In this document: positions 2,896-54,473 of the stretch, piece after piece
Layout: each line of letters begins with the position of its first letter
Numbering within the stretch: position 1 is the first letter of the stretch
Assembly (NCBI GenBank): GCA_011525625.1
Contig: WYAX01000003.1
Location: 124,001-188,000 of the forward strand
From: Nitrospira defluvii
GTDB lineage: Bacteria; Nitrospirota; Nitrospiria; Nitrospirales; Nitrospiraceae
Direction of reading: 5' to 3'
DNA: 64,000 nucleotides
Made by a program: the position numbers and the translations under genes
Notes under the pieces: generated by a model
What the model was told of the DNA's origin: nothing
What the model saw: only the letters and a program-made list of their open reading frames with translations
Databases searched by the model: none

Positions 2896-3447
2896 ATGCT
2901 GACATCAACACATCGCCTGACCGTGCTGTTGCTCACCGCCTTCCTCATCGGAACCGGATGCGTCCACAGCATTCAGTTGTCGATTCCCGCGAATGGCACC
3001 AGCACCGCACCGATTCCAGCGAGCGCACAACTTGAGGTGCCGTTTCTGGCCATAGAAGGAGCGGATCATATGCCGGGAATTCCCCTGCTCGAATGGCCGG
3101 CGAAAGAGCTTCGACACACCATCACCCACTACTTTACTCAACGCCAAACGTTCACGAGCATCGGATCCGAACCTGGTGATCTGCACCTCGTCGTCAAGGC
3201 CTGGCTGACCCTACGCGCTCCGGACCGCTATCTCTACCGTGTGCACTTAGAATCCGACGTCTCATTCCCTGGGCAAGCACCGATCAAAACCTACGCTGCG
3301 GAAGGAGAGGCCCTGGGGTCGTCAGTGCGATGGGTCACCGCATCCGACCAAGACCCTATCGCAGAGGCTACCAGTCAAGCCTTACAGCAACTAGCGACCC
3401 AGATTGAGGCGGATCGGGACCTGATCATGAAGGGTACTCGTCGGTAA
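2896..3447 (+). CDS. Hypothetical lipoprotein
   Basis: 183-residue protein. Its N-terminus is a basic start, a hydrophobic run (TVLLLTAFLIG) and a lipobox TGC, giving Cys22 as the acylation site. The reading frame is open further upstream, but only ATG 2896 yields a coherent signal peptide. The mature part looks like a mixed alpha/beta periplasmic domain (for example DLHLVVKAWLTLRAPDRYLY), and I do not recognise a family with confidence. It starts 19 bases after the preceding lipoprotein gene, which suggests an operon. Confidence 0.75.
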   Translation: MLTSTHRLTVLLLTAFLIGTGCVHSIQLSIPANGTSTAPIPASAQLEVPFLAIEGADHMPGIPLLEWPAKELRHTITHYFTQRQTFTSIGSEPGDLHLVVKAWLTLRAPDRYLYRVHLESDVSFPGQAPIKTYAAEGEALGSSVRWVTASDQDPIAEATSQALQQLATQIEADRDLIMKGTRR

Positions 3448-3480
3448 CGCACCACACGTCCGCCCGCAAACAGAATACGC

Positions 3481-3678
3481 TCACTTCGCTGCATGCCCAC
3501 GGGGCGCGCAGAATTCCTCACACAGCACCATCCGAAGCTCCGGCGCTACAGGCGAACCCGAGTACGGGTTGATGCCCGAATGTGTGCGATCGCCGTATAC
3601 GTTCGGATACGAGCCCGTATCAGTTTCGATACAGATTCTGACACCCGATTGTTGAGCGTCCGGCGCTTCTCTCTTCAC
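3481..3678 (-). CDS. Possible small hypothetical protein
   Basis: On the minus strand an AGGAGG lies 6 bases before GTG at 3678 and opens a 65-residue frame. The product is soluble, with three cysteines (VRICIET, VLCEEFC) and a Gly/Ser/Pro-rich middle. The ribosome site and the lack of any other gene between 3448 and 3871 are the only support. Family not recognised; it may be spurious. Confidence 0.35.
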   Translation of the reverse strand: MKREAPDAQQSGVRICIETDTGSYPNVYGDRTHSGINPYSGSPVAPELRMVLCEEFCAPRGHAAK

Positions 3679-3871
3679 AATTCTCCTCCTCATGGCTTAC
3701 GACCTGATTGTTCTCCTTTCAGGATATTTTCGCGCGCACCCTCACAATCGTGGCATCATGTTTGCTCACCACTCGATCCGCAACTTACTGCCCCCTACTT
3801 GCCTTCCCCTCAACCGAGACAAGCGGAATACAGGGAGGGCCCATATCAAGCGCTGGGGAGAAAGTGCCTGT

Positions 3872-5068
3872 GTGCCCAAACGCATAATTCTGTGTTTCGA
3901 TGGCGAATGGGACCGTCCTCCAGACCCTGGCGTCTGGCCGTCTGCAGCAAGTGCTGTACGGACACCTCGCCGTTCCGGCCTCGAATGCCCCTCGCGTCGG
4001 GAGACGAACGTGTCCCACCTCTACCGATCGATTCTTCCGCGGACAGAGCAGGGGCTCGTACAACAGCGGTGGTATGACTCCGGCACGAGCATGGCTTGGT
4101 TTGATCGATTCCAGGCGGGATCGTTCGGCTATGGGCTCGACAGAACCATCCTCCTGAGCTATGCCTATCTGGCCGCAACCTACGAACCGGGCGATGAGCT
4201 CTTCCTCTATGGATTCAGTCGAGGGGCTTATACTGCACGAACCCTTGTGGGCCTGCTCGCAAACATAGGCCTGCCTTCAGGTACCCTGCTGAATCAAGAC
4301 TTGGTCACGTTCACTCGGGAAACCGCGAACTTGGCCGCAGGCAACACGACGGAGATGCATGATCTGACTGAGTGCCTTGGTCAAATGATTCTCAGTCGTT
4401 CAGGCTATGTCATTGCCGATGCGTATCGACGCTATCGCAGCACACAAGCCGACATCGACAGTTCCAGAGCTGCCGCGTCGAGACGCCGCGGATTCCAAGG
4501 TGTTTCCGTGTCGCTTCTTGGACTCTGGGACACCGTGGGCCCGCTGGGCATCCCCACAAATGCACTCAAATGGCTGAATGAGCCTCGTTATAACTTTCAC
4601 GATACCGAGCTGAGCCCCATCGTACGGCGGGCCTACCACGCGCTCGCCATTGATGAACACCGGGCAAACTACAACGCGACTCTATGGACATCTCCTGCAA
4701 GAACCAGTCAATTCATTGAACAGCGATGGTTCGCCGGAGCACATGGAGATCTCGGAGGAACCTATCCTGAGCGTGGGTTAGCGAATGTACCCCTGGCGTG
4801 GATGTTACACATTTCACGGATGAACGGCCTGGCGATTGATCGACGCACGTTGCAAGGGAAAATAGATGCGCTCAGTCCGGCTCACGATTCGTTCGGTGAA
4901 TCTTTTGTTGGGCTCCGAAAGTGGATTCACTCACGATTCTATCGGCCCGTCATGCAAACCGGCACGAATACCGAAGTTCTCGACGAATCCGTCCACACAC
5001 GCTTGCTCCAAACCCACTCCTACAGACCAAAAAACGAAGGCCTGAGCAGCCTGCTCACATTTCGCTAA
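3872..5068 (+). CDS. DUF2235 domain protein (alpha/beta-hydrolase type)
   Basis: The protein begins VPKRIILCFDG, the typical first residues of DUF2235 proteins, so GTG 3872 (GGGAG 11 bases upstream) is preferred over upstream ATGs at 3692 and 3758. The nucleophile elbow GFSRGA (Ser116), WYDSGT (Asp69) and a later HGDLGG motif are present, as in the alpha/beta-hydrolase fold of this family, which includes Tle1-type phospholipases. There is about 25 residues of extra sequence between FDGEW and TNV compared with the usual pattern. No type VI secretion or immunity gene is beside it and no signal peptide is seen, so a cytoplasmic hydrolase of unknown substrate is the safe call. Confidence 0.9.
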   Translation: MPKRIILCFDGEWDRPPDPGVWPSAASAVRTPRRSGLECPSRRETNVSHLYRSILPRTEQGLVQQRWYDSGTSMAWFDRFQAGSFGYGLDRTILLSYAYLAATYEPGDELFLYGFSRGAYTARTLVGLLANIGLPSGTLLNQDLVTFTRETANLAAGNTTEMHDLTECLGQMILSRSGYVIADAYRRYRSTQADIDSSRAAASRRRGFQGVSVSLLGLWDTVGPLGIPTNALKWLNEPRYNFHDTELSPIVRRAYHALAIDEHRANYNATLWTSPARTSQFIEQRWFAGAHGDLGGTYPERGLANVPLAWMLHISRMNGLAIDRRTLQGKIDALSPAHDSFGESFVGLRKWIHSRFYRPVMQTGTNTEVLDESVHTRLLQTHSYRPKNEGLSSLLTFR

Positions 5069-5363
5069 CTGGATGTCCGGCAACGAAAGAGTGCGCGGTA
5101 CGCCTGTCCGTGCTCCTAGCGCAAACACTCTCGACCTTCCCCACCCTTTCCCGACCACCGGCCCTACATACAGCGTGCCCGCGCTCTCGGATCCGTCATG
5201 AAACCTTGCGCCTACTCGTCGCGACCTTTCCTTCCAGTGGCTTCTTCAACCGCCGTCCCCTCCGTAGACGTACCTCCTTCGCAGACTATCCGACGAGTCA
5301 GAAGCGCGATACCTTCGGCCACGATATGCGTGCGAACAGTCAGATAGGTGGTGGGAGGGACAG

Positions 5364-5726
5364 GTGAGACGACCGCAGACGGTAACATTCGTGGTCCATT
5401 GCACAGTCTCTGCTCTGGCGACCGGCTTCGCAGACCTGGCGCAGATTTATTATCGAGAACGCAGCGCCTTGCAGCGCACAACCTTCCACAGACTCATCGA
5501 CGACGACTATCTCGCCCTTCAGCTGCATCACCACAATGATCGCCGTCCCCTTTCGGTTCGCCTCGCGAGAGTACTGTGGGTACAAGAAGCGCGATTCGCC
5601 GTGGAACCGCTCATTATGGACGCTGATGAGTACATTCTGCTCAGTCAACTCTTCGACACCACTCCCCTCCTGGAGATGCAATTGCAGGATTCGCCATCAG
5701 AACTCATCATTCGCGCGACAGAATGA
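5364..5726 (+). CDS. Hypothetical protein
   Basis: A strong GGGAGG sits about 6 bases before GTG 5364, which decides the start. The 120-residue product is soluble, with no signal peptide, no cysteine motif and no domain I recognise; the C-terminal half is acidic (MDADEYILLSQLFD). The 295 bases before it hold nothing convincing. Confidence 0.6.
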   Translation: MRRPQTVTFVVHCTVSALATGFADLAQIYYRERSALQRTTFHRLIDDDYLALQLHHHNDRRPLSVRLARVLWVQEARFAVEPLIMDADEYILLSQLFDTTPLLEMQLQDSPSELIIRATE

Positions 5727-5998
5727 CTGATGCTCCAAGCCAACGAGCATCACCCGGTCAACAGTGGCCCCCTATGGCTCGTCCCCTGTGCTCAGCCAGC
5801 CCCTACATAACGCAAGTCTCTCCGCCTCGCGCGAAGAGACCCAGCTGTCACGTCGTCCTCCGAGAAGGAGGGAAATAGTCGTAGCAACTCGGGGCCACCC
5901 TGAGCAGGGTCCCTCCAAGGAGGTACTTCGTTCCGGTCTACCGGGAAGGAGCATCGGAATCTAAGCTTACACGTAGGCACTGAACAACGGAGGAACCT

Positions 5999-6247
5999 AT
6001 GACGAACTGTTCTCGCTGCGCAGGATGCATGATTGAAGACTTTTTGTTGGATATGGAGGATTCATCCGGCCCCATGTGGCTCAAAGCATGGCGCTGCATG
6101 AACTGCGGAAATATCTATGAACGTGTATTGCAGCAAAACCGGCTGGCCAAGGAAGCACAGATGGGTGCGCCGACCGCCATCGTCCCGCATGCGAGCGCCG
6201 AACGCCTACCGTTGGGCGCCGACGGGCTCGAGCAGCTGGCGGCCTAG
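5999..6247 (+). CDS. Small zinc-ribbon-like protein
   Basis: GGAGG lies 6 bases before ATG. The 82-residue protein carries CSRC-AGC near the N-terminus and MNCGN (CMNC) about 28 residues later; the two CxxC knuckles are the pattern of a treble-clef or zinc-ribbon metal site. Such short proteins often bind nucleic acid or protein, but nothing here proves a role. First of a chain of very short genes (to 7.3 kb) on the same strand. Confidence 0.75.
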   Translation: MTNCSRCAGCMIEDFLLDMEDSSGPMWLKAWRCMNCGNIYERVLQQNRLAKEAQMGAPTAIVPHASAERLPLGADGLEQLAA

Positions 6248-6313
6248 GGCAACCGCGAACGGCCTGGTGAGGTCTCACAACCATGTCATTACCGAATGTG
6301 TGGATCGACGAAC

Positions 6314-6493
6314 ATGTCAATTGATGTAGAGCTGGCCCTCATCCTCGGGCTATTCATCATCGGTGCGGTGGTGCTCGCAATCGACAACCTCGTGTATGCC
6401 TTATCCAGACGAGTGAGTCGTTGGATGCAGGACCGAAAATCGTCGCGCACTGCATCCCCTGCGCCCATTTCGCCTCAGAAAAAAAGGCCGTAA
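6314..6493 (+). CDS. Small single-span membrane protein
   Basis: About 60 residues: a hydrophobic segment (LALILGLFIIGAVVLAI) followed by a very basic tail (SRRVSRWMQDRKSSR). This is a one-helix inner-membrane protein by the positive-inside rule. ATG 6314 puts the helix right after the start; ATG 6296 in frame is an alternative. No clear ribosome site, so moderate confidence. Confidence 0.5.
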   Translation: MSIDVELALILGLFIIGAVVLAIDNLVYALSRRVSRWMQDRKSSRTASPAPISPQKKRP

Positions 6494-6613
6494 CAGGACA
6501 ACTCTGTGTTTCAGGACTCCACACGGCACAAACAGGCGATCATCCAACACGCGGGTGGATCGCCCCCCTGTTCCTTCAACGGCTTCTTGGTCCGCCTATA
6601 TAAGGAGGTTTCA

Positions 6614-6763
6614 GTGACAAGTTCCCGACCCAAAACAGCCCAGCGGGTAGGATCGCAAGCTCAACGGCCTGATGGTATCCCGCAAACGCTCCTCTTTTTT
6701 ATCCTCAAACAGCTGGAAACACCTCATCCTGCTGTCGGCATACAGCAGGACCCCCTACAATGA
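6614..6763 (+). CDS. Small protein coupled to the next gene
   Basis: A near-perfect ribosome site (AAGGAGG) is 5 bases before GTG 6614. The 49-residue frame ends in a TGA that overlaps the ATG of the following membrane-protein gene (ATGA at 6760), the classic layout for translational coupling. The product has no recognised motif. It may be a real small protein or a leader whose translation opens the next start. Confidence 0.5.
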   Translation: MTSSRPKTAQRVGSQAQRPDGIPQTLLFFILKQLETPHPAVGIQQDPLQ

Positions 6764-7131
6764 CCCCTCGGCCCTGGGCGGTACTACGAGACGCAGGGAT
6801 TGTGTATGGGCTGACCTTTGCAGCCGGGATCGGCATGGCCTCGATCGGAGTGACACTGCAAAGTAATCCTTCGTCGGCGTACGTGGCGAACCTACTCTCG
6901 GGAGCGCTCGGCTTTTTAGTATCTGGACTTCGGGCCACTTCGGAGCGGGTCGAACATCTCGCCTGGGTAGCGGCAACCCTCTGGACATGTAACCTCCTTA
7001 ACGTCGCGTTGCACCTGCAGAGCGCCGCCTCCTGGATTCACAGCGGCCTTACGGTCATCTTCATGGCCGCCCTTGGCGGAACCCTGTCTATGATACTCCC
7101 GCCTCGCGCATCGTTTCATCGACAACGATGA
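6760..7131 (+). CDS. Hypothetical multi-span membrane protein
   Basis: 123 residues with about three to four hydrophobic segments (AGIVYGLTFAAGIGMASIG, LLSGALGFLVSG, WVAATLWTCNLLNVAL, GLTVIFMAALGGTLSMIL). No signal peptide cleavage site or catalytic motif is seen. Its ATG overlaps the stop of the 49-residue frame before it. Family not recognised. Confidence 0.65.
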   Translation: MTPRPWAVLRDAGIVYGLTFAAGIGMASIGVTLQSNPSSAYVANLLSGALGFLVSGLRATSERVEHLAWVAATLWTCNLLNVALHLQSAASWIHSGLTVIFMAALGGTLSMILPPRASFHRQR

Positions 7132-7223
7132 GCCCAAGCCATGTCCACACCGCCGGGCCGGTGGATTCGGCAAACAGTGCAATCGACATCTTAACCATCC
7201 GTGACGGCGGGAAGGAGAAGACC

Positions 7224-7316
7224 ATGAGCCGACACGTGCGGGAAACATTGCGCGACAATGGGGGATCTGCAGCCTACCTATCGAGTCTCGGTACGGACGT
7301 CCGATACCGTCCGTGA
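7224..7316 (+). CDS. Possible 30-residue peptide
   Basis: GGAAGGAG lies about 6 bases before ATG 7224 and opens a 30-codon frame that runs 39 bases antisense into the end of the efflux outer-membrane gene. A longer in-frame ATG at 7128 overlaps the previous stop (ATGA). Only the ribosome site and the overlap support it. Confidence 0.25.
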   Translation: MSRHVRETLRDNGGSAAYLSSLGTDVRYRP

Positions 7317-8720
7317 CCGCTCATCCGATGACTCTCCTTCAGGTGACCAACCGCCGCCAAGCGCCTTGTACAACTGAACGATCGACACCAGATGCAATCG
7401 ATGGGTGCCCATAAGGGCTAATTCGGCTTCAAACAAATTGCGCTGAGCGATCAAGACATCCAGATAATTGGCCAATCCTCCTTTGTACCGGAGATTCGCT
7501 AAACTCAGGGCCGACCTCAGCGCGTCGACTTGTTGTAGCTGCGCGGTACGCTGCTCGCGAACCGTCCGAACCGCGACCAGCGAATCCTCGACTTCTTTGA
7601 ACGCCACCAACACCGCCTGCTCATACTGCGCCACAGCCTGCCTGGCTTGGGCTTCCGCGGCTTCCTGTTGAAAACCCAGAATCTGCGCGTTCAGTAATGG
7701 CCCGGCCAGGCCTGGCCCAGCCACGCCAAAGGCGGTTTCATTGGCCACCAGTCTCGAAAGGTGCGGACTCGCCACCCCCAAAATTCCGGTGATGCTCAGT
7801 TTCGGAAACCGGTCGGCTTTGGCCATGCCGATTCGAGCGGTAGCCGCAGCAAGGTCCTGCTCTGCCTGTAAAATATCAGGACGCCGCTGGAGCAGCTCGG
7901 AAGGAAGCCCAGGCGGAACATCAGGAGGCATCACCTGTTCCGTCAACGAGTGGCCGCGTGCAATTCGTCCGGGATTCCGGCCCAGCAACACACTCAGTTG
8001 GTTCTCCTTCTGCACTTTCTGTCGCTCAAACTCTGCCGCCTTTGCCGCGGCATTGGCCCGTTCGGCTTCGAATTGGTCTGCGTCGAGCTTTGAAATCATC
8101 CCCTGTCGCAGCCGTGCCTGCGCGATCCTGACCGACTCCTCCCAGGACTTGAGCGTACGCCGGGCAATGTCGAGTTGCATGTCGAACTGCAACAGATCGA
8201 AGTAGGCCTCCGCCACCCCGCTCACCAACTGGAGCACGATGGCTCGTCGATTCTCCTCACGCGCAAGCAAGTCTCCACGAGCCGCTTCATTCGACCTCCG
8301 GATGCGTCCCCAAATATCGAGCTCCCATGAGAGATTTCCTTGCAGGTAGTAATTGAAGGGGTTGGGAAATCCCGGAAAGAGAAAATTGGTCTTGCGGCCA
8401 AACAGCGGGGCATTGGCGGTCACATTCATCTGCGGGGCGAAGTCGGTCCTCGCAACAAATAGGCGGGCCTGAAACTCCTCCACCGCCGCCGCCGCACGTT
8501 TTAAGTCTTTGTTCTCCTCAAGTGCTGTGCGAATGAGCTTCTGCAGCTCCTGATCCTTGAGCAATTCCCACCAGGGCGTATTGGCAATCGACGCCGCATC
8601 GCCACCCGACTCCGCCATACGGAAGGCATCCGGCGTCGTCGCCTCGGGTCTAGTGAAATCCGGACCGAGGGCACACCCGGCCAACAACCCTGCACCAAGC
8701 ACCAACGCCAGTCTATGCAT
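7278..8720 (-). CDS. RND efflux outer-membrane lipoprotein (OprM/NodT family), operon 1
   Basis: Outer-membrane channel of a tripartite efflux pump. Signal peptide with lipobox LLAGC (Cys16) followed by the family start ALGPDFTRP; then the two repeated helical OEP domains with WWELLKDQEL, NYYLQGNLSWELDIWGRIRRSNEAARGD and RRPDILQAEQDL. The frame is open to 8792, but ATG 8720 begins the signal peptide directly and overlaps the pump gene by 8 bases, the spacing expected within an operon. It is strikingly similar to the outer-membrane factor of operon 2 (22658-24130), more so than the pumps are to each other. Confidence 0.95.
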   Translation of the reverse strand: MHRLALVLGAGLLAGCALGPDFTRPEATTPDAFRMAESGGDAASIANTPWWELLKDQELQKLIRTALEENKDLKRAAAAVEEFQARLFVARTDFAPQMNVTANAPLFGRKTNFLFPGFPNPFNYYLQGNLSWELDIWGRIRRSNEAARGDLLAREENRRAIVLQLVSGVAEAYFDLLQFDMQLDIARRTLKSWEESVRIAQARLRQGMISKLDADQFEAERANAAAKAAEFERQKVQKENQLSVLLGRNPGRIARGHSLTEQVMPPDVPPGLPSELLQRRPDILQAEQDLAAATARIGMAKADRFPKLSITGILGVASPHLSRLVANETAFGVAGPGLAGPLLNAQILGFQQEAAEAQARQAVAQYEQAVLVAFKEVEDSLVAVRTVREQRTAQLQQVDALRSALSLANLRYKGGLANYLDVLIAQRNLFEAELALMGTHRLHLVSIVQLYKALGGGWSPEGESSDERSRTVSDVRTETR

Positions 8721-11700
8721 GCTGATAGTCGCGCTCCTTTTCCGGTCCATCCGGCATATGCGGTGAAGGCGGAGAGCCAGGATTCGTTCCACGGCTGCTC
8801 AGCGAGCGGATCAAGACAAAGAACAACGGCACAAAAAAGATGGCCAAAAACGTCGCGGCCACCATGCCGCCGAACACGCCGGTGCCGATCGAATTACGAC
8901 TAGCGGCACCGGCTCCAGTCGCGACCACCAGCGGCACCACGCCCAAAATAAACGCCATCGACGTCATCACGATCGGACGGAATCGAAGTTTCGCCGCCTC
9001 GATTGTCGCATCCAACAAGGGATGCCCTTCCTCATACCGTTTGTTCGCAAACTCCACGATCAGGATGGCATTCTTGGCCGAGAGTCCGATCAACGTTACC
9101 AGGCCGATCTGAAAATAAATGTCATTCGTCATCCCCTTGAGCCACACCGCACTCAGCGCGCCGAACAATCCGATAGGGACCGCCAGAATGACCGCAAACG
9201 GCACCACCCAGCTCTCATATTGGGCAGCCAGCACCAGGAAAACCATCAACAATCCAAACCCGAAGGCGTAGAAGGACTGGTTCCCGACCATTCGCTCTTG
9301 ATAGGAAATGCCGCTCCAGTCGATTCCGTACCCCTTTGGCGCCAAGACCTCTTTCGCCAACGTATCGAGCGCATCCAACACCTGCCCTGAACTCACCCCT
9401 GGCGCCGCCGCACCAAGGACCAGCGCCGTGTTATATCCGTTGAAATGCGTCACTGGATCGGGACCGCTGCTGAACTCCGTGCTCACCACCGTATCCAACG
9501 GAATCATCGTCGGGCCCTGCGCACCGACCGCCCGCACATAGATCTTGGAAATATCGTCCGGCGTCGACCGGTACTGCGCTTCCGCCTCCGTCTGTACACG
9601 AAACACCCGGCCGAATTTGACAAAATCGTTAATGTAGAGATTTCCGAAATAGGCCTGCAACGTATCGAACACTTCAGAAATCGGCACGCCTAACGCCTTG
9701 GCACGTTCACGGTTCACCTTGGCGAAAATCCTCGGGGCGCTCACACGAAAGCTGGTCCCGATGGCGCCGATCGCCGGATTCTGCCTAGCCTTGGACACGA
9801 ACTCCTGAGCCACCGCGGAGAACTTGTTAAAATCGCCTCCGCTCGGATCTTGGAGCTGCACCGAAAACCCACCCGTGGCTCCCAGGCCCCGAATCGACGG
9901 GGCATTAAAGGCAAGAATCAACGCCTCTGGAATCTTGGCAAATTCTCCGTAGGAGGCCCCGATGAGGGATTTCACATGATGTTGCGGCGCCGTTCGCTCG
10001 TCCCAATGTTTGAGCGGCACAAACATCGTCGCGGCATTGGACCCTCGAGTGTTGAAGACGAAGTTTTGCCCCGAGAGGGCATCCGTCGAATGAATCGCGG
10101 GACTCGCCAGGAAATAGCTTTCGATCTTACTCAACACGGCATCCGTACGTTGCTTCGACGCCCCGTCGGGAAGTTGCACGATCGTGATGAAATACCCCTG
10201 ATCTTCCTCCGGCAAAAAGCTGTTCGGCGTAATTCTGAACAGCATGACGACGCCCACGAGCAGAACGCCGAAGAGCGCCATCGAGAGCACCCGCCGCGAC
10301 AGAGTCAGGCCGACGGTCGAGGCATATCGAGCCTGCATCCAGGCGAAGGTCCGGTTGAATCGACCGAACAATCCGCGATGAGATTCCTCTCCTGGCTTGA
10401 GCACCAGCGCGCACAACGCGGGGCTCAAGGTCAGCGCGACGAAGCCGGAGATAATGACGGCAATGGAGATGGTAATGGCAAACTGTTTGTACAGCTCGCC
10501 GGTGATCCCGCCTAAAAATCCGACCGGAACAAACACCGCGCACAGCACCAACACAATCGCGATCACCGGCCCCGTCACTTCCTCCATCGCCCGCTTCGCA
10601 GCCTGTTTTGCCGAGAGCCTGCCTTGGCTCATATGCCGTTCGCAGTTTTCAACGACGACAATCGCATCGTCCACCACGATCCCGATCGCCAATACCATGC
10701 CGAACAGGGTGAGGGTATTGATCGAAAAGCCGAGCGCCTGCATACCGGCGAACGTTCCGATCAGGGAAACCGGCACCGCCACCCCGGGTATCAATGTCGC
10801 ACGCCAGCTCTGCAAAAACAGATAGACCACGAGGATGACCAGCACCATCGCTTCGGCCAACGTCTTGACGACTTCTTTGATGGAGACATCGATAAAGCGA
10901 GTGGTGTCATAGGGAATGTCATACGACACGCCGGTCGGAAATCCTTTGGACACCTCCGACAACTCAGCCCGCACCCGTTTCACGGTTTCCAGCGCATTGG
11001 CCCCCGGGGAGAGAAAGGTGAGCAAGAACACGTTCGGCTTCCCGTTCCAACGGCCTTCGAGGGTGTAGGATTGCGCCCCCAACTCTACACGCGCGACATC
11101 CTTCAGCCGGACCATCGATCCGTTCGGCATCGCGCGCACGATCATCTCCTCGAAATCTTTGACTTCCGTCAGCCGGCCTTGGGTAATGACGGGGATCGTG
11201 AGCTCTGTTCCCTTCAATGCCGGCTCCCGGCCGATCGTGCCGGCCGGAAAATCGCGGTTCTGTTCACGCACAACGTTGGCGATATCCGTCGGTATCAAAC
11301 TGAGCTGAGCCATGCGGATCGGATCCAGAATCAATCGCATCGAATAGTTCTGTGAACCGAAGACCACCGCATTGCCCACGCCTCGGAGACGCTTCAGGTT
11401 GTCGAGGACGCGAAGAATCGCATAATTGGAGAGATAGACCGTGTCATGGGTCGGATCGGTCGAACTCAACGCGACGACGGCCAACAGGTCCGGCGACACC
11501 TTGTTGATACTGATGCCCTGCCGGACAACCTCAGGCGGCAACTGCGGCTCCGCAAGTTTCACGCGGTTCTGCGTTTGCACCTGCGCGATATCGACATCCG
11601 TGCCGATCTCGAAGGTCAACTTGATCGACATATGTCCGTCGTTCGTACTGGTCGAATCGTAGTAGAGCAGATTGTCGATACCGGGCAGCTGCACCTCTAT

Positions 11701-11895
11701 GGGGCGCGCCACCGAATCGGCCACGATTTCCGCATTGGCGCCGGGGTAGTCGGCTTCGATCTGAACGACCGGTGGGGTGATTTCCGGAAATTGGGCGACC
11801 GGCAAGGCCTGTAACGCGACCACGCCGAGCACCATGATGACGATCGACAAGACCGAAGCGAAAATCGGGCGGTCGATAAAGAAATGTGAGATCAC
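8713..11895 (-). CDS. RND efflux pump, HAE1 (AcrB/MexB) type, operon 1
   Basis: Inner-membrane proton-driven multidrug transporter, 1060 residues, the normal size for AcrB homologues. Starts MISHFFIDRPIFASVLSI, with 12 membrane spans and two large periplasmic loops. The proton-relay Asp pair is present in GIVVDDAIVVVEN, and the second-half motif LVTLIGLSAKNAILIVEFAN is intact. Gene order adaptor-pump-outer-membrane factor, with a 4-base overlap to the adaptor, shows one operon. Substrates cannot be read from sequence; hydrophobic compounds are typical of this subclass. Confidence 0.97.
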   Translation of the reverse strand: MISHFFIDRPIFASVLSIVIMVLGVVALQALPVAQFPEITPPVVQIEADYPGANAEIVADSVARPIEVQLPGIDNLLYYDSTSTNDGHMSIKLTFEIGTDVDIAQVQTQNRVKLAEPQLPPEVVRQGISINKVSPDLLAVVALSSTDPTHDTVYLSNYAILRVLDNLKRLRGVGNAVVFGSQNYSMRLILDPIRMAQLSLIPTDIANVVREQNRDFPAGTIGREPALKGTELTIPVITQGRLTEVKDFEEMIVRAMPNGSMVRLKDVARVELGAQSYTLEGRWNGKPNVFLLTFLSPGANALETVKRVRAELSEVSKGFPTGVSYDIPYDTTRFIDVSIKEVVKTLAEAMVLVILVVYLFLQSWRATLIPGVAVPVSLIGTFAGMQALGFSINTLTLFGMVLAIGIVVDDAIVVVENCERHMSQGRLSAKQAAKRAMEEVTGPVIAIVLVLCAVFVPVGFLGGITGELYKQFAITISIAVIISGFVALTLSPALCALVLKPGEESHRGLFGRFNRTFAWMQARYASTVGLTLSRRVLSMALFGVLLVGVVMLFRITPNSFLPEEDQGYFITIVQLPDGASKQRTDAVLSKIESYFLASPAIHSTDALSGQNFVFNTRGSNAATMFVPLKHWDERTAPQHHVKSLIGASYGEFAKIPEALILAFNAPSIRGLGATGGFSVQLQDPSGGDFNKFSAVAQEFVSKARQNPAIGAIGTSFRVSAPRIFAKVNRERAKALGVPISEVFDTLQAYFGNLYINDFVKFGRVFRVQTEAEAQYRSTPDDISKIYVRAVGAQGPTMIPLDTVVSTEFSSGPDPVTHFNGYNTALVLGAAAPGVSSGQVLDALDTLAKEVLAPKGYGIDWSGISYQERMVGNQSFYAFGFGLLMVFLVLAAQYESWVVPFAVILAVPIGLFGALSAVWLKGMTNDIYFQIGLVTLIGLSAKNAILIVEFANKRYEEGHPLLDATIEAAKLRFRPIVMTSMAFILGVVPLVVATGAGAASRNSIGTGVFGGMVAATFLAIFFVPLFFVLIRSLSSRGTNPGSPPSPHMPDGPEKERDYQHA

Positions 11896-13088
11896 TGCGC
11901 GCGCTCCGGCTGTGTCGGGGCGGCGGTCGGAACGGTCGCTGCGCCGACGGCGGGAACCGGTACGGGCTTCACCGGAGCCCCGGGCGCGATTTTATGCAGG
12001 CCCTCCACAATGATGCGATCGCCGACATGCAATCCCTCCTCCACAATCCACTGGTTGCCCTGCCAACTGGTCGCCACGATCTCCCGCATCTCGACCTTAT
12101 CGTCCTTGCCCACCACAAATACGATGGAGCCCTTGGCACCCTGCTGGACGGCGCGTTGCGGCACCAGAATCGCCCCGGTCTTGAGGGTGCCCTTGAATCG
12201 CACGCGTACGAACTGCCCCGGCAACAACACCCGGTCGGGGTTGGGAAATACCACCCGCGCCTGTCGTGAGCCCGTATCGGTTTTTAATCCTACATCGAGC
12301 AGATCCAAGACCCCTTCATGCCGGTACGTGGTGCCGTCGACAAACGTGAGCACGCCGCGCAATTGGTACACGCCGGGGTGTTGAATACGTTTGGCATCGG
12401 TATCGCGCTTCCGCTTCAGCAAAAAACTCTCCGGCGCGCTCACGATGACATACATGGGGTCGACTTGATGAATCATAGTCAACAGATCCGTTTGCGCCGA
12501 CACCAACCGCCCTTCATACACACGAGTCCGTTCGATCATCCCATTGATCGGCGCGATGATCAGCGTATTGTCGAGATCGAATTTCGCTTTGACGAGTTCG
12601 GCTTTGGCGCCTTCGAGAGCGGCCTTCGCCGCCAACTCTTCGGCCACCGCGTCATCCACGTCTTTCGTACTGACCGCCTGCTCCGCTAACAGCGGCTTCA
12701 CGCGCGCCAGATTCTGCTTCGCCTGCACCAACCGGGCTTCCGATTGCGCCACTTTGGCCTTGGCACTCAGCATTGCGGCGTGGAAGGGCACAGGATCGAT
12801 TTGATAGAGCCGATCGCCCTTTTTGACGTCGCGCCCTTCCTTAAAAAACCACTGTTTCAGAATGCCGGTGACCTGAGATCGAATTTCCACGGGACGCGAC
12901 GACTCGGCCTGCCCGATAAATTCCGGTTCGTCAGGCACATCCTGAGCGGTCGCGACCACGACCCCCACCTCCGGCACCTGGAGCGGCGGAGCGGACCCGG
13001 CTTCCTGCTTGCAACCAGGGACAAGCGCCAACGCGAACCACCCGCACAACATCGGCGCGAGAGCGGACCATCGCAGTCGCCTGATCAT
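11892..13088 (-). CDS. RND periplasmic adaptor (membrane fusion protein), operon 1
   Basis: Links pump and outer-membrane channel. Signal peptide with lipobox LVPGC (Cys26), split biotinyl-lipoyl domain (PVEIRSQVTGILKQWFFKEG ... INGMIERTRVYEGRLV), alpha-hairpin (~100-165, AKVAQSEARLVQAKQNLARV) and beta-barrel, ending in an Ala/Pro/Val-rich tail. ATG 13088 has GGAG 5 bases upstream and is preferred over ATG 13112. First gene of the operon, with about 245 bases to the next gene upstream, where the promoter should lie; no linked repressor gene is seen. Confidence 0.94.
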   Translation of the reverse strand: MIRRLRWSALAPMLCGWFALALVPGCKQEAGSAPPLQVPEVGVVVATAQDVPDEPEFIGQAESSRPVEIRSQVTGILKQWFFKEGRDVKKGDRLYQIDPVPFHAAMLSAKAKVAQSEARLVQAKQNLARVKPLLAEQAVSTKDVDDAVAEELAAKAALEGAKAELVKAKFDLDNTLIIAPINGMIERTRVYEGRLVSAQTDLLTMIHQVDPMYVIVSAPESFLLKRKRDTDAKRIQHPGVYQLRGVLTFVDGTTYRHEGVLDLLDVGLKTDTGSRQARVVFPNPDRVLLPGQFVRVRFKGTLKTGAILVPQRAVQQGAKGSIVFVVGKDDKVEMREIVATSWQGNQWIVEEGLHVGDRIIVEGLHKIAPGAPVKPVPVPAVGAATVPTAAPTQPERAQ

Positions 13089-48084: not shown

Positions 48085-48507
48085 TTACTCCAGATCCTCC
48101 ACCCACACGAGACGATCATGAAACGGGTGCGCAGCTAATGCCCTATAGAATTTTCTGTCGGCCGTGATCAAGCGTCCTTCAACGACCTCCGCAAGAGCAA
48201 GGTACAGGCAATCGTACACACTCCGCTGCGTATCCAATGCAAGTTCGTAGGCAGCCGGAAACAGACGCTCGTCGGCATGTCGCTGGAGCGGAAGATACCG
48301 TAACTCCTTGAGGATCGTGCTTCCCTCCGCACGAGTGAGTTCTTTTCGCCTAATCTTCTTGGCGATAACGCTGCCGAGTTCCATCACCATGAAAGCGGGA
48401 ACATGAAGGTATTCATGAAGGCGAGTCGCGAGGAGCGCGGCATCAGAATGGATTTCAGAGATGAACCAATTAGTCGCGACACTGGCATCCACGACATAGC
48501 CGCTCAC
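48085..48507 (-). CDS. vapC: PIN-domain ribonuclease toxin (VapC family)
   Basis: 140 residues: YVVDASVATNWFISE with the first catalytic Asp, MELGSVIAKK with the conserved Glu, TQRSVYDCLYLALAE and RLITADRKFYRAL with the remaining acidic residues. The PIN fold cuts RNA with Mg2+, in this family usually tRNA or rRNA. The start overlaps the antitoxin stop by 4 bases. Neutralised by the RHH antitoxin encoded just upstream. Confidence 0.93.
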   Translation of the reverse strand: MSGYVVDASVATNWFISEIHSDAALLATRLHEYLHVPAFMVMELGSVIAKKIRRKELTRAEGSTILKELRYLPLQRHADERLFPAAYELALDTQRSVYDCLYLALAEVVEGRLITADRKFYRALAAHPFHDRLVWVEDLE

Positions 48508-48737
48508 CGGTCGCGGTCTCCCCGGATAAGGTCAGCACTATCATGGAATCTCTTTCCGGACTTCCTGAGTCGCTCACGCAATCTCTCGATTCGCTTCCAA
48601 GCCGCTTCATAGTCCGGCACCGCTTCTTCCAAGATCGTCTTTACTTCGGACTGCAAAGAGCGGCCATGCTCCTTCGCCCGCTTCTTCAACCGACCAATGA
48701 CATTGCTATTAAGCTGCCGCACAAGGACCTGAGCCAT
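48504..48737 (-). CDS. vapB: Ribbon-helix-helix antitoxin (FitA/VapB type)
   Basis: 77 residues from ATG 48737 with GGAGG 5 bases upstream. MAQVLVRQLNSNVIGRLKKRAKEHGRSLQSEVKTILEEAV is the FitA-like RHH DNA-binding domain; the basic/acidic C-terminal helix (AAWKRIERLRERLRKSGKRFH) should wrap the toxin. A perfect 19-base palindrome lies 27 bases upstream of the start and is the probable operator for autorepression by the complex. Confidence 0.93.
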   Translation of the reverse strand: MAQVLVRQLNSNVIGRLKKRAKEHGRSLQSEVKTILEEAVPDYEAAWKRIERLRERLRKSGKRFHDSADLIRGDRDR

Positions 48738-48764
48738 AACGGCCTCCAAATTACAGGACCAACA

Positions 48765-48783
48765 TGATAGCAGGATGCTATCA
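48765..48783 (-). promoter_or_regulatory. Palindromic operator of the vapBC operon
   Basis: TGATAGCA, a 3-base spacer, then TGCTATCA: a perfect 8-bp inverted repeat ending 27 bases before the antitoxin start. On the minus strand the right arm includes TATCAT, which resembles a -10 box, so a bound VapBC complex would cover the promoter. The site is seen; its function is inference from how FitAB/VapBC operons are controlled. Confidence 0.75.
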
Positions 48784-48863
48784 CTCTCGACACATGCGGC
48801 CACTGAAGTGCAAGAGAGGGGATGCGCAAGATGAATGTCTGCAAAAACGAGAGCAGCCATTTT

Positions 48864-49466: not shown

Positions 49467-51710
49467 CTATTTGAAGCAGTCTCCTATAGTTCCCGCTTTC
49501 CCCCCTTCTTTCGCTATCGTGCCTGGTTTCAGTCTATTGTTATCTTGATAGGCAACAGCTTCGCGATACCGAGCGCGTTTCTGTGATGCATTGCTCCCGT
49601 GGCCGAAAAACCAACCGAGCTGTCGTGCATAATACCGCCCGAGCTCGCGATAGGCTCCAAAGAGAAAAGGAGAGGAGTTTGCCGTGATCCATTTCGTATC
49701 GTTCTGGGGAATATATGGACAACGATCGCTACCATTTATCCCATTGCCATTACTTGAATTCTGCATCAAAAAGCCAAGTAACTCGCAGCTCACAAAATCT
49801 TCGTATTTCCAACCTCCAACAGAATCAGCCTTGCGTTGTCCCAATTGCCCGCTATAAGGATATGGTTGCCCATCATATAGCGCCCGACAAGCTGGCACGG
49901 CTGAAGGGGCACATGCTTTAGAGTTTGATTCGTTTTTGCATGTATCATTTGTCTTAGCCAATATGTCCTTTATACCTTTGAGTGCCACACCTAATTTATT
50001 TCCTGACTTCACACTTGGGAAAGCGGGCTTGATGAGGAATAGGCGTTGGAAATGCGATCCAGGAGCTGGCTCATCATTCATACACGTATCATTCTTCGCA
50101 TTATCTGTTATGCAACCCAATAGGATCGGGTGTTCCCAATGAAAAATGTCATAGCCTTGCTCGCTCTCTTTCTGATCGCAAAAATCGTTCAGGCGGTCCA
50201 GGGCGGGAAAGTAGACATAGAGGTGCGTTGCAGAACCATGCTCCCTCTCTAACCCACGCTTTAATCTACACACATCCTCCATCTTTCCGCTTCTGTCAGC
50301 AGAATGGTCCGAGAGAATAATGTCTGGGAGCTTACGTTGTATCAGCGCATAGGCACCTAGGTTTTCCGACTGTCCCCCATCTGATAGCCGAACATTGACG
50401 TACTTTTCGGCAGAATCGCCGGACCGCAAATGGAACAGATAAAATGGCCCAGGGATAACTTTATGAATAGCTCTTTGGAACCAATGAACCTGAAGGTTGG
50501 AAAGACTCACCCCCCAATTTAGGGTGGACGGATTGAGCATGATATTAACCCAAGGAGGATAAACTTTTTGCTGAGCGTCCAGGAAAGCCGCTGAAATCGT
50601 GACAGCCTGCCAGGGCATACGATCACCGATTACCGCCCGAGAATACCCGAACAGGCCTGACCCAGACCCGTAGGGCGAAAGCTCAAAACTTGTCATTTGA
50701 AAGGGCTTCTGGCCAGGATGTGCGAGCGCAGAAAAGAAGTCTCGATTTTCTCCAGCTGTCGCATTGATAATCCACAAAGGTATCGTTCCCTTTTCGTATT
50801 CCTCTCTAAGTTTGTCAAAGGTAAGGCTGGTGCGAACCCAATTCTCATCCCCTTGTAAGCGAAAACCTCCTACACAATAGTCGTTACGCTGTGCACAATC
50901 GGATGGAGTAGCTCCATAAGCCCTTAAAATGCCTTGCTGATACTGCAAGCGAGATGTTGAGAGGGGAAATTCCCAGTCGAATATCACATTCGGCACAAAG
51001 TTGACGGCAATTGAACCGAGGGTGAGCAGGACAGTACCGGCATATTCCACACCAACGCGGAGCTGATCTAGTGTCGTTTCCTTATAACCAAATGGCCGGC
51101 GCCAATTCCAAGCAAATACGTCCTGATAGCCCCGAAGATGATTCTGGTAGCGCACCGGGTCCTGCGAAAAGACCCCATTTTGATCTCTATCATAGTTCGT
51201 TTCAGGTGCGGGGCAAGGTCCTGACCAAGGTAGGTTAGAGTCATAGTTGTGACGAGACACGCCTTCCTTATGCGTGTCCGTGTCTAAGTATGTTTCTATA
51301 TACTTTAGCGGGATACAATCGCGGAAAAACTGGCTGGCATAGTCACTCGAAGTTAGTGGCGCCACCACACCTTCATTATTCTCTTCCGGATTCAAGAGTC
51401 GCGAGAAGTACCATAGAGCCGCATATCCCCCTCCCGACACCGTAGATACGGCATCTACCTCCTCCATAATGCCCGCCTCGGTCAGACCTTGAAGCACACC
51501 TATGGAAAAATCGGCCGCCTTCGTCCCTCCGCCTGCTAGAGCAAGTCCAAGTTTTGGCTCACTGCCTTTGACTTGCTTGCGAACAGCAACGCCTTGATTA
51601 AGGTAGTCCTCTTTCTTTAATCCACCCGGAAGAGGCTGGATACCACAGCCACCAGACAAGATTCCGATGAATACTAGAACGGCTCCAATCTGAAGATTCG
51701 ACAAGTTCAT
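49467..51710 (-). CDS. Patatin/cPLA2-like phospholipase lipoprotein
   Basis: 747 residues, AT-richer than flanks. Signal peptide with lipobox SGGC (Cys22). Patatin-type oxyanion loop LALAGGGTKAADFSIG (60-70), nucleophile Ser92 in S-T-V-S-G-G-G, and the Asp of the dyad in VNVRLSDGGQSENLGAYALIQ. The V-S-G-G form and D-G-G-x-x-E-N-L-G resemble the cPLA2-like branch. It should hydrolyse phospholipids on the periplasmic face or outside. Last gene of a four-gene minus-strand run that starts with three related lipoproteins. The long C-terminal part is Cys-rich (about six Cys), consistent with export and disulfides. Confidence 0.85.
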   Translation of the reverse strand: MNLSNLQIGAVLVFIGILSGGCGIQPLPGGLKKEDYLNQGVAVRKQVKGSEPKLGLALAGGGTKAADFSIGVLQGLTEAGIMEEVDAVSTVSGGGYAALWYFSRLLNPEENNEGVVAPLTSSDYASQFFRDCIPLKYIETYLDTDTHKEGVSRHNYDSNLPWSGPCPAPETNYDRDQNGVFSQDPVRYQNHLRGYQDVFAWNWRRPFGYKETTLDQLRVGVEYAGTVLLTLGSIAVNFVPNVIFDWEFPLSTSRLQYQQGILRAYGATPSDCAQRNDYCVGGFRLQGDENWVRTSLTFDKLREEYEKGTIPLWIINATAGENRDFFSALAHPGQKPFQMTSFELSPYGSGSGLFGYSRAVIGDRMPWQAVTISAAFLDAQQKVYPPWVNIMLNPSTLNWGVSLSNLQVHWFQRAIHKVIPGPFYLFHLRSGDSAEKYVNVRLSDGGQSENLGAYALIQRKLPDIILSDHSADRSGKMEDVCRLKRGLEREHGSATHLYVYFPALDRLNDFCDQKESEQGYDIFHWEHPILLGCITDNAKNDTCMNDEPAPGSHFQRLFLIKPAFPSVKSGNKLGVALKGIKDILAKTNDTCKNESNSKACAPSAVPACRALYDGQPYPYSGQLGQRKADSVGGWKYEDFVSCELLGFLMQNSSNGNGINGSDRCPYIPQNDTKWITANSSPFLFGAYRELGRYYARQLGWFFGHGSNASQKRARYREAVAYQDNNRLKPGTIAKEGGKAGTIGDCFK

Positions 51711-51772
51711 AGATTCGTTCCAGGGAATGGGTATGAAGTTCGCAGGAGTGAAGTCATCGGTTTCAGATGAGG

Positions 51773-52366
51773 CTACAGTTCACTTTCATATTTCCCCGCC
51801 AGTTCGACATCACTCTGAGAATCACATATTCCGGCCAATCGATCACCGAGCGCCCGCAGCATGTCGGCTTTCGTTGTCCAAACATGTATCTCCCTTCTAG
51901 GGAAGGCGATCCTATACAGCCCCTCTAGCTTCTTCCGAGAAGCATCATCGTCTTTCTTGGAGTATTCGGAGAGCTTCGCCTTGGCCTTTGCCTTCTTGTC
52001 CTTGAGCCCCTGGGATTCATCCACACACTGCCCAAATAGGGCCGCAACATTAGCTCCATCGCGGGCAAGGTTCTTTGCCGCAACACCTGTCGCGAAGACA
52101 TTCTTAATTCTGCTCTCGTAAGCAAACCGTATGTCGAGGTCGGTCTTGGATATGGCTGAACCGGCGTTTTCTCCGGGGGCCGTTCGCGGAACCACCGCAA
52201 TGATCCCCCGGTCGTACCCAAGGTTGACATCGACCGGCTTGACATCGGCCTGCGGAGCGATCTTGATCTGCGTTCCGACATGGGTATGTTCGGCATAGAT
52301 CATTCCTTGGTAGGTGCATCCGGCGCTGAGAGCCAGCACCGCGACAAGGACAGTTTTTTCGAACAT
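51773..52366 (-). CDS. Lipoprotein of the patatin-linked family (member 3)
   Basis: 197 residues; lipobox SAGC (Cys17). N-terminal block MIYAEHTHVGTQIKIAPQ and VNLGYDRGIIAVVPR recurs in the two genes upstream. A second block, RIKNVFATGVAAKNLA, matches member 2 (FATGVAA). The middle is Lys/Ala-rich and probably coiled (KDKKAKAKAKLSEYSKK). No known family. 62 bases separate it from the patatin gene. Confidence 0.78.
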   Translation of the reverse strand: MFEKTVLVAVLALSAGCTYQGMIYAEHTHVGTQIKIAPQADVKPVDVNLGYDRGIIAVVPRTAPGENAGSAISKTDLDIRFAYESRIKNVFATGVAAKNLARDGANVAALFGQCVDESQGLKDKKAKAKAKLSEYSKKDDDASRKKLEGLYRIAFPRREIHVWTTKADMLRALGDRLAGICDSQSDVELAGKYESEL

Positions 52367-52389
52367 GGTCGTTCTCCGTTGGAATTTCG

Positions 52390-52980
52390 TTAGTCGTTCG
52401 GAACCGTCACCAGCGCTTTAATCGCCTGGGGCCGACAGGCCATCCTGGTCGCTGCGACACCCGTCGCGAAATAGGTATGCACTCGCGAGGCCTCGAACCA
52501 TGCCACTTCGGCATTGAATGAGGAAATGACGGAAAGCGGCTCACTGCGGTCTAAGTCCTCGGCCGGGCAATCGGGATCCTCTCCCCTCGCCGCCTGAAAA
52601 CTATCCATAAAATCCTTCTTGGCCTTCCTGACCTCCGCCTCAACGAAGGTCGCCTTTTCAAGTTCTGACTTACCTGAAGTCTGGGAGTTGGCTTCGGCAG
52701 TTGCTCTGGCTTCGGCACTCACCTTTTCCAACTTTTCCCGGAGCAGTTGTCGATCTGTTTCAATTTTCTTCTTCTCCTCATCACTTTTCCCGGCGTTAGC
52801 CTTGGGAATCAGCGTCATGATGGAACGTCGATATCCAAAATCCACCTCACCAGGAGTGCCATCCACTGCCGCCTTCGCCTTCAGGCCTATATGCGACTCT
52901 TCGACGAAATACAGGCGCTCATGAGATGAGCACCCGCTCAGCACCGTGACAAGCATCATTGTTATCAACTGAGGGATCAC
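52390..52980 (-). CDS. Lipoprotein of the patatin-linked family (member 2)
   Basis: 196 residues; lipobox LSGC (Cys17). Block 1 VEESHIGLKAKAAVDG and DFGYRRSIMTLIPKA; then a charged coiled-coil stretch (~70-125, EEKKKIETDRQLLREKLEK, EKATFVEAEVRKAKKD); block 2 VHTYFATGVAATRMA close to the end. Its start overlaps the stop of member 1 (ATGA), so translation is coupled. The coiled coil suggests it multimerises or spans the periplasm. Confidence 0.78.
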   Translation of the reverse strand: MIPQLITMMLVTVLSGCSSHERLYFVEESHIGLKAKAAVDGTPGEVDFGYRRSIMTLIPKANAGKSDEEKKKIETDRQLLREKLEKVSAEARATAEANSQTSGKSELEKATFVEAEVRKAKKDFMDSFQAARGEDPDCPAEDLDRSEPLSVISSFNAEVAWFEASRVHTYFATGVAATRMACRPQAIKALVTVPND

Positions 52981-53555
52981 TTGTAACCTCCAGGTTCAGA
53001 GCTATACCGTGTGGCATGTAGATCATTTTCTGCAAAATCTATCTTCGTCGTGACTGACTCACTGACGGAAGGCCCGACGACGACTGCCGTGTGCTCATAG
53101 CCGATCATGAGTCCATTGGAAATCAGGCTGAAGCCTAATTCCGCGCCAATCACCCGCTTCACAAACAGCCCGGACTCGCTTGGAGCGGCATCCGTCACAC
53201 AGAACATACCGTCCTCATTGCCGGTCGATTCTTCCGAGCGATGTGGTTGTACCGTGATAACCTTCCTATACCCAATCGATAGTCCTGGATCGTGCGACCC
53301 CACACGTACGTCCAGACCAATAGACTGCACCAACAGGACATGGGCATGTGGACTGTTGATCATGGAATACCGAATTGCGCCACCGTGCTGCACTACGCCA
53401 TGCGCATCCTCCCAATGGACGGCCACGCAGCCGCCAAGGGACAACCCGATCAACAACAAGAACACCCAGCCGCGCACTTGCCCAGATCCCCCAAGCAGTC
53501 CTTTCCAGGCTCGATCAGGATTGATGGCAGGCGAAACAAGCTGAGCTTCAATCAC
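52977..53555 (-). CDS. Lipoprotein of the patatin-linked family (member 1)
   Basis: 192 residues as annotated; lipobox SLGGC (Cys43), preceded by a long n-region, so the true start may be later than 53555 (no good ribosome site decides it). It has block 1 (SIGLDVRVGSHDPGLSIGYRK, VITVQP) but not the coiled coil or the FATGVAA block. Instead the C-terminus is a beta-rich tail (MIGYEHTAVVVGPSVSESVT). First gene of the patatin operon. Confidence 0.75.
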   Translation of the reverse strand: MIEAQLVSPAINPDRAWKGLLGGSGQVRGWVFLLLIGLSLGGCVAVHWEDAHGVVQHGGAIRYSMINSPHAHVLLVQSIGLDVRVGSHDPGLSIGYRKVITVQPHRSEESTGNEDGMFCVTDAAPSESGLFVKRVIGAELGFSLISNGLMIGYEHTAVVVGPSVSESVTTKIDFAENDLHATRYSSEPGGYK

Positions 53556-54126: not shown

Positions 54127-54473
54127 TCATACTGCAATTTGGCAATCGAAGAGCACCTCGCCGCTCACGAACGCATGCTTGCCTGTCGTGCCCTGCGGAT
54201 GCACTTTGAGTACCATGCTGTTCTCATCAATCACGACCGTGACTTCGGCACCCGCCTTCGGCATGACATGCCCATGCCGCTCCGAGCGATTCTTCTTGAG
54301 CAGATACGTGGTCCCGTTCGGCACCTTCACCACTACCTGTCCGCCTTTCTCCACCACCACTCCATGCAGCTCCTGCTGATGGCTCTTGACGGCAGACTGA
54401 TCTGCCATCGCCACCTGTCCCGTCAGTATCGCACTATCAACGCGAGGATCCCCTGCCGCATGAATGTTCGCAT
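54127..54473 (-). pseudogene. Small secreted protein gene, frameshifted in the signal peptide
   Basis: The frame at 54127-54414 encodes ~95 residues of an exported-type small protein (VVVKVPNGTTYLLKKNRSERH, VTVVIDENSMVLKVHPQG) but begins abruptly at MADQS. Upstream, an AGGAGG lies before ATG 54473 and encodes MRTFMRQGILALIV in another frame. Inserting one G at about 54431 joins them into a perfect signal peptide, GILALIV-AILTGQVAMA before DQS. So the gene is interrupted by a one-base deletion, either real or a sequencing error. Family unknown. Confidence 0.7.

What the first reader, a model, noticed from the sequence alone, without database searches (positions are those of the whole stretch)
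49467..53555. Four-gene AT-rich operon: three related lipoproteins plus a patatin/cPLA2-like lipoprotein
All four genes run on the minus strand with small gaps or overlaps (ATGA between members 1 and 2). Three encode lipoproteins that share a block of the form I/V-G-x3-K/R ... G-Y-x-R/K-x-I, and two also share FATGVAA. The fourth is a large lipidated phospholipase-like protein with an intact Ser/Asp dyad. Base composition is visibly lower in GC than the neighbours, which suggests transfer. I know of no described system of this make-up; it could be a surface lipase with accessory or immunity-like lipoproteins.
Basis: partly seen in the sequence, partly recalled or inferred. Interest (0 to 1): 0.8.

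Follow-up and report, generated by a model that had tools for sequence, protein, structure and literature searches.

The report
Lipoprotein trio paired with swappable lipases
A Nitrospira-family bacterium carries a four-gene operon in which three lipoproteins from families no database describes are followed by a membrane-anchored phospholipase; the same trio recurs in about twenty related genomes beside different, even structurally unrelated, lipid-cutting enzymes, so it looks like a real, undescribed system for handling exported lipases.

Summary
The operon is real. Three lipoprotein genes (lipA 53555-52977, lipB 52980-52390, lipC 52366-51773) precede a lipidated cPLA2/patatin-type enzyme (51710-49467), all on the minus strand, with a 4-base overlap and gaps of 23 and 62 bases. 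LipB and LipC are paralogues. LipA is a separate family that shares only a short hairpin motif. Neither family matches Pfam, NCBIfam, PHROGs, PADLOC or PDB sequences. The grouping is not chance. Profiles find lipA followed by lipB-lipC, or by a fused lipBC, in 19 of 395 Nitrospirota genomes and 2 of 398 Pseudomonadota. In all nine genomes with separate lipB and lipC, the next gene is a large exported lipase-like enzyme: two patatin subfamilies or a lipidated alpha/beta-hydrolase. Modules that are 52-70% identical carry enzymes of unrelated fold. A patatin lies within 5 kb of the module in 10 of 21 genomes (0.28 expected). The sister patatin occurs without the trio in three genus-mates, but beside other lipoproteins. 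The window's genome has no T6SS sheath gene, which argues against the obvious effector-immunity reading. Most likely the trio is an outer-membrane partner that anchors and controls a co-exported lipase; its sign of action and target are unknown. Recurrence and swapping are shown; mechanism is inferred.

The parts
52977..53555 (-). lipA: predicted lipoprotein, LipA family (192 aa from the first GTG; likely starts about codon 27)
   Evidence: family profile A6 finds it directly before lipB(C) in the module loci scanned; no Pfam, NCBIfam or PDB match
52390..52980 (-). lipB: predicted lipoprotein of the FATG family with a helical insert (196 aa)
   Evidence: profile A3/A7; no family match
51773..52366 (-). 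lipC: predicted lipoprotein of the FATG family, paralogue of lipB (197 aa)
   Evidence: tblastn P0002 against lipB E=6.9e-5; sisters in the tree at 99/96 support, with long branches
49467..51710 (-). Lipidated cPLA2/patatin-type phospholipase, type 1 (747 aa; lipobox LSGGC; oxyanion motif GGGTKA; Ser92; Asp444)
   Evidence: Pfam Patatin E=1.4e-6; invariant dyad; Foldseek and VIA-align to human cPLA2

Best explanation
The operon encodes an exported, membrane-anchored phospholipase together with three partner lipoproteins that form a constant accessory module of the outer membrane or periplasm. LipA and the paired LipB/LipC domains most likely assemble at the outer membrane, bind the lipase after export, and both anchor it and set its activity. 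The enzyme's Ser/Asp dyad would hydrolyse acyl esters of membrane lipids, its own or another cell's. Across genomes the module stays while the lipase is exchanged (two patatin subfamilies, lipidated alpha/beta-hydrolases), so the lipoproteins probably recognise something common to these enzymes or their substrate, the membrane lipid, rather than one enzyme's surface. Shown: gene order, lipoboxes by inspection, homology, recurrence, enzyme swapping, purifying selection. Inferred: outer-membrane location, complex formation, control of activity, substrate.
For: The lipA then lipB-lipC (or fused lipBC) module is found in 19 of 395 Nitrospirota genomes plus G013 and G028 and in 2 of 398 Pseudomonadota. 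All nine loci with separate lipB and lipC have a large exported lipase-like gene next downstream: type-1 patatin (window), type-2 patatin (G004, G007, G023, G028, G228, G278), lipidated GHSxG hydrolase (G210, G284). Of the fused loci, G193 has the type-1 patatin next to it; G342, G303, G407, G013 and G001 have a patatin or alpha/beta hydrolase nearby. Patatin within 5 kb of the module: 10 of 21 genomes, 0.28 expected, P=3e-14; with like arrangements collapsed, 4 of 15, P=3.5e-5. Enzyme swap: LipA of G228 (patatin) and G210 (alpha/beta-hydrolase) are 70% identical. dN/dS is 0.10-0.52 for all four genes between close pairs.
Against: No experiment or interaction data exist. The LipC model is useless (pLDDT 39), so no fold supports binding. 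Several fused-module loci (G216, G234, G237, G197, G047) have no lipase next to them. Type-1 patatin occurs without the trio in G018, G022, G015 and outside Nitrospirota. Two loci sit beside cell-wall hydrolases instead, so the partner may be envelope hydrolases in general.
Confidence: 0.5

Rival explanations
1. Lipase effector plus immunity: the enzyme is an antibacterial toxin acting in the periplasm of rivals, and the lipoproteins protect the producer, like T6SS Tle with Tli lipoproteins.
For: Tli3 is an outer-membrane lipoprotein that inhibits the phospholipase Tle3 (PMC9860674); a Tli can also activate its Tle (PMC10294624). The gene pairing and swapped lipases resemble effector loci.
Against: The enzymes carry their own signal peptides or lipoboxes. 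The T6SS sheath gene is absent from the window's genome and from 16 of the 23 module genomes tested. Cognate immunity is usually specific (Tli1 does not inhibit Tle3, PMC9860674), whereas here close module relatives go with unrelated folds. Three lipoproteins per enzyme is unusual.
Confidence: 0.17
2. Surface lipid scavenging: an outer-membrane lipase with lipid-binding accessory lipoproteins that capture substrate for nutrition.
For: All four products are predicted lipoproteins; exported lipases of different fold are swapped, as digestive enzymes might be. Lipoproteins of Sus-like surface complexes bind substrates (general knowledge; title and abstract of PMC5080379).
Against: No TonB-type transporter or fatty-acid uptake gene is in the operon or recurrent beside the module. 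The hosts are mainly nitrifier relatives with little need for lipid feeding (general knowledge). Several modules sit with conflict-type domains (pYEATS, TIR, CHAT, FRG).
Confidence: 0.15
3. Passenger grouping: fast-moving AT-rich genes of accessory islands that collect lipases and lipoproteins without functional linkage.
For: The module is AT-richer than its flanks in 24 of 24 loci; a FitA-PIN pair and a gene remnant lie beside it; type-1 patatin has other partners elsewhere.
Against: Tight operon spacing; 9 of 9 split modules with a downstream lipase; gene order conserved at 15-25% identity; purifying selection.
Confidence: 0.08

Closest known systems
T6SS lipase effector/immunity pairs (Tle/Tli, e.g. 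Tle3/Tli3)
   Same: A phospholipase or lipase encoded beside lipoprotein(s) of the outer membrane; enzymes of different folds occur across the kind.
   Different: Here the enzyme is itself exported and often lipidated, no T6SS sheath gene is found in the genome, three lipoproteins in conserved order precede the enzyme, and the lipoprotein families are shared across enzyme folds.
cPLA2 / bacterial patatin-like phospholipases (PlpD, ExoU, VipD, CapV, CapE)
   Same: Fold, oxyanion GGG motif, nucleophile Ser in SGG, Asp in DGG.
   Different: 747 aa with large insertions, lipobox, no beta-barrel or secretion domain recognised; TVSGG instead of the usual GxSxG.
NTP-dependent prokaryotic conflict systems (PMC7159879)
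   Same: Some modules lie beside TIR, CHAT and alpha/beta-hydrolase genes of kinds that paper reports (plus pYEATS and FRG), with an effector-swapping logic.
   Different: No NTPase core; the products are exported lipoproteins; a search of that paper's text for 'lipoprotein' and 'phospholipase' found them only in its reference list.

Membership tests
Patatin/cPLA2 phospholipase superfamily (49467-51710) | Sequence match to the Patatin profile above the curated cut-off | tested here: met
   PF01734 29.1 bits against 27.7
Patatin/cPLA2 phospholipase superfamily (49467-51710) | Ser-Asp dyad and glycine-rich oxyanion loop conserved | tested here: met
   G60-G62, S92, D444-G446 invariant in six homologues down to 29% identity
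Patatin/cPLA2 phospholipase superfamily (49467-51710) | Fold | tested here: met
   Model pTM 0.65; human GIVD cPLA2 Z 18.9 over 329 residues, GIVA Z 16.4
Patatin/cPLA2 phospholipase superfamily (49467-51710) | Phospholipase activity | not testable with these tools
   needs an assay
T6SS Tle/Tli effector-immunity | T6SS present in the genome | tested here: not met
   VipB/TssC (PF05943) absent from G000 (99.5% complete) and from 16 of 23 module genomes
T6SS Tle/Tli effector-immunity | Effector without its own Sec signal, delivered by VgrG/Hcp | tested here: not met
   N-terminal lipobox LSGGC, by inspection; no VgrG-like ORF seen beside it
T6SS Tle/Tli effector-immunity | Immunity protein neutralises the effector | not testable with these tools
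   needs a co-expression assay
Bacterial lipoproteins (all four proteins) | Signal peptide ending in a lipobox cysteine | tested here: met
   by inspection; no signal-peptide predictor available. The Cys is invariant in the LipA alignment
Any Pfam/NCBIfam/PHROG/PADLOC/PDB-sequence family for LipA, LipB, LipC | Significant profile match | tested here: not met

The most novel reading that the evidence does not exclude
LipA plus LipB/C is the constant sensing and control core of an undescribed modular envelope effector system (defence, antagonism or regulated self-lysis). It holds an exported lipase inactive at the outer membrane and releases it on a membrane or envelope signal, with interchangeable lipid- or wall-degrading enzymes as effectors.
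Probability: 0.25. Interest if true: 0.85.

Novelty: new variant of a known kind. Interest (0 to 1): 0.62.

Why it matters
Two lipoprotein families without any database annotation travel as a unit with lipases of unrelated folds in nitrifier relatives. If the lipoproteins control the lipases, this is a general, enzyme-independent way for Gram-negative bacteria to handle their own exported phospholipases, distinct from T6SS effector-immunity pairs and lipase foldases. It can be tested in E. coli with four genes.

Tried and rejected
Plasmid collection (tblastn of P0001 and of a fused LipBC) and viral contigs (LipB and LipBC alignments): no match; PHROGs and PADLOC: none. So there is no sign of a phage or plasmid origin, nor of a catalogued defence system. 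AlphaFold of LipC with four sequences: mean pLDDT 39, not used. A genome-contig scan with the LipB/C alignment could not be run for lack of conserved stretches; the one scan went to the patatin, which returned only close Nitrospira-type loci, single patatins in Steroidobacter and Achromobacter without lipoprotein partners, and two weak Streptomyces matches. Homology of LipA to LipB/C: not established. Promoter/terminator scan of the operon: no more sites than in shuffles. Paper searches found no description of this combination; most subscription papers are not held.

Full report
WHAT IS THERE. Four minus-strand ORFs lie at 53555-49467: lipA, lipB, lipC and a 747-aa enzyme. By eye each product has a signal peptide with a lipobox (LGGC, LSGC, SAGC, SGGC) and no Asp at +2. 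The lipA start is uncertain; a GTG at codon 27 sits right at the signal peptide. GC is 0.49-0.55 against 0.61 for the rest of the window, GC3 0.47-0.62 against 0.71 +/- 0.06.

THE ENZYME. It passes Pfam Patatin. The oxyanion glycines, Ser92 and Asp444 are invariant down to 29% identity. A model (pTM 0.65, mean pLDDT 54) matches human group IVD and IVA cPLA2 best (Z 18.9 and 16.4), ahead of PlpD, CapE and ExoU.

THE LIPOPROTEINS. LipB and LipC are paralogues of one family with consensus T-x-T-x-x-G-L-E ... P-P-x-V-x-x-G-Y-K-R-x-E-x-x-x-x-P ... S-V-L-A ... F-A-T-G-x-A-A. In many genomes the two are fused in one protein. LipA is a second family with a lipobox Cys and two invariant Gly. The two families share only a short beta-hairpin-like motif. 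Neither matches Pfam, NCBIfam, PHROGs, PADLOC or PDB sequences. In the window LipB and LipC appear to be a local duplication, though on long branches.

RECURRENCE. The genome is of the family of Nitrospira sp. RSF1 (G193/L101). The LipB/C profile finds 19 of 395 Nitrospirota genomes, plus G013 and G028, and 2 of 398 Pseudomonadota. A LipA-like gene is recognised directly before lipB(C) in the Nitrospirota module loci scanned, very weakly in G013, G216, G237 and G407; in G234 it was identified by position and alignment. In the Pseudomonadota it lies directly after lipBC in G600 and is not recognised with confidence in G449.

PARTNERS. Nine genomes have separate lipB and lipC; in all nine the next gene is a large exported lipase-like enzyme: type-1 patatin in the window, a different ~1,060-1,210-aa patatin in G004, G007, G023, G028, G228 and G278, and lipidated alpha/beta-hydrolases with GHSxG in G210 and G284. 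Among fused modules, RSF1 (G193) has the type-1 patatin adjacent; G342 has a third, lipidated patatin about 3 kb on; G303, G407 and G001 have alpha/beta-hydrolases, and G013 a CHAT protein with an LCAT-like hydrolase region plus a patatin. G216, G234, G237, G197 and G047 show no such enzyme next door. A patatin lies within 5 kb in 10 of 21 genomes against 0.28 expected (P=3e-14; P=3.5e-5 after collapsing like arrangements).

ENZYME SWAPPING. LipA of G228 and G210 are 70% identical, yet G228 carries a patatin and G210 an alpha/beta-hydrolase. The RSF1, G342, G407 and G303 modules are about 60% identical with three enzyme classes nearby. Conversely the type-1 patatin (53-54%) sits in G018, G022 and G015 in another operon, with two other lipoproteins, a membrane protein and a DUF1353-like gene (named by memory, not tested), and alone in Steroidobacter and Achromobacter. 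The module and the lipase families are thus separately mobile but repeatedly combined. All four genes are under purifying selection (dN/dS 0.10-0.52), and the module is AT-richer than its flanks in 24 of 24 loci.

HOW IT MIGHT WORK. Inference: the trio is an outer-membrane or periplasmic partner that anchors and controls a co-exported lipase. A partner shared by unrelated folds more likely acts through location, membrane lipid or a common surface than as a tailor-made antidote. The nearest known kind, Tle/Tli, pairs a phospholipase with an outer-membrane lipoprotein (PMC9860674, PMC10294624), but no T6SS sheath gene is found in the window's genome and most module genomes and these enzymes are exported by their own signals, so membership is not met. 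Working like it (inhibition or activation by a lipoprotein) remains possible.

VERDICT. The system is undescribed in the libraries searched; its mechanism needs the bench.

Noticed in passing
window 54127-54414 (-): 95-aa remnant of a ~170-aa exported protein (SHHQELQGVVVEKGG) that is intact near the type-1 patatin operon in G018 and G022 (L033:4005-4517, L034:13266-13778).
   Followed up: partly
window 48085-48860 (-): FitA-like ribbon-helix-helix antitoxin and PIN toxin pair beside the operon; a related PIN gene is also near the patatin in L033 and L035.
   Followed up: partly
L106 (G013) 3882-13001: pYEATS-like/TIR-like protein, membrane protein, lipA-lipBC and a 1512-aa protein with DUF7379, LCAT-like and CHAT regions: a conflict-type cluster around the module (pYEATS/TIR assignment by eye).
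   Followed up: no
L060 (G001) 3125-11417: S8-type and M64-type peptidases (by eye), a DUF900 alpha/beta-hydrolase, lipA, fused lipBC and a small membrane protein in one direction.
   Followed up: no
L128 (G600) 5769-6194 and L120 (G080) 5153-5917: An M15-like peptidase gene (by eye) or a CHAP/peptidoglycan-binding gene, endolysin-like, lies directly upstream of the lip genes, so cell-wall hydrolases may also be partners.
   Followed up: no
L033 10409-14438, L034 2882-7026, L035 68-3522: Alternative operon of the sister patatin: 427-aa and 533-541-aa lipoproteins plus a 377-407-aa membrane protein; the one from G018 has no significant Pfam or NCBIfam match.
   Followed up: partly
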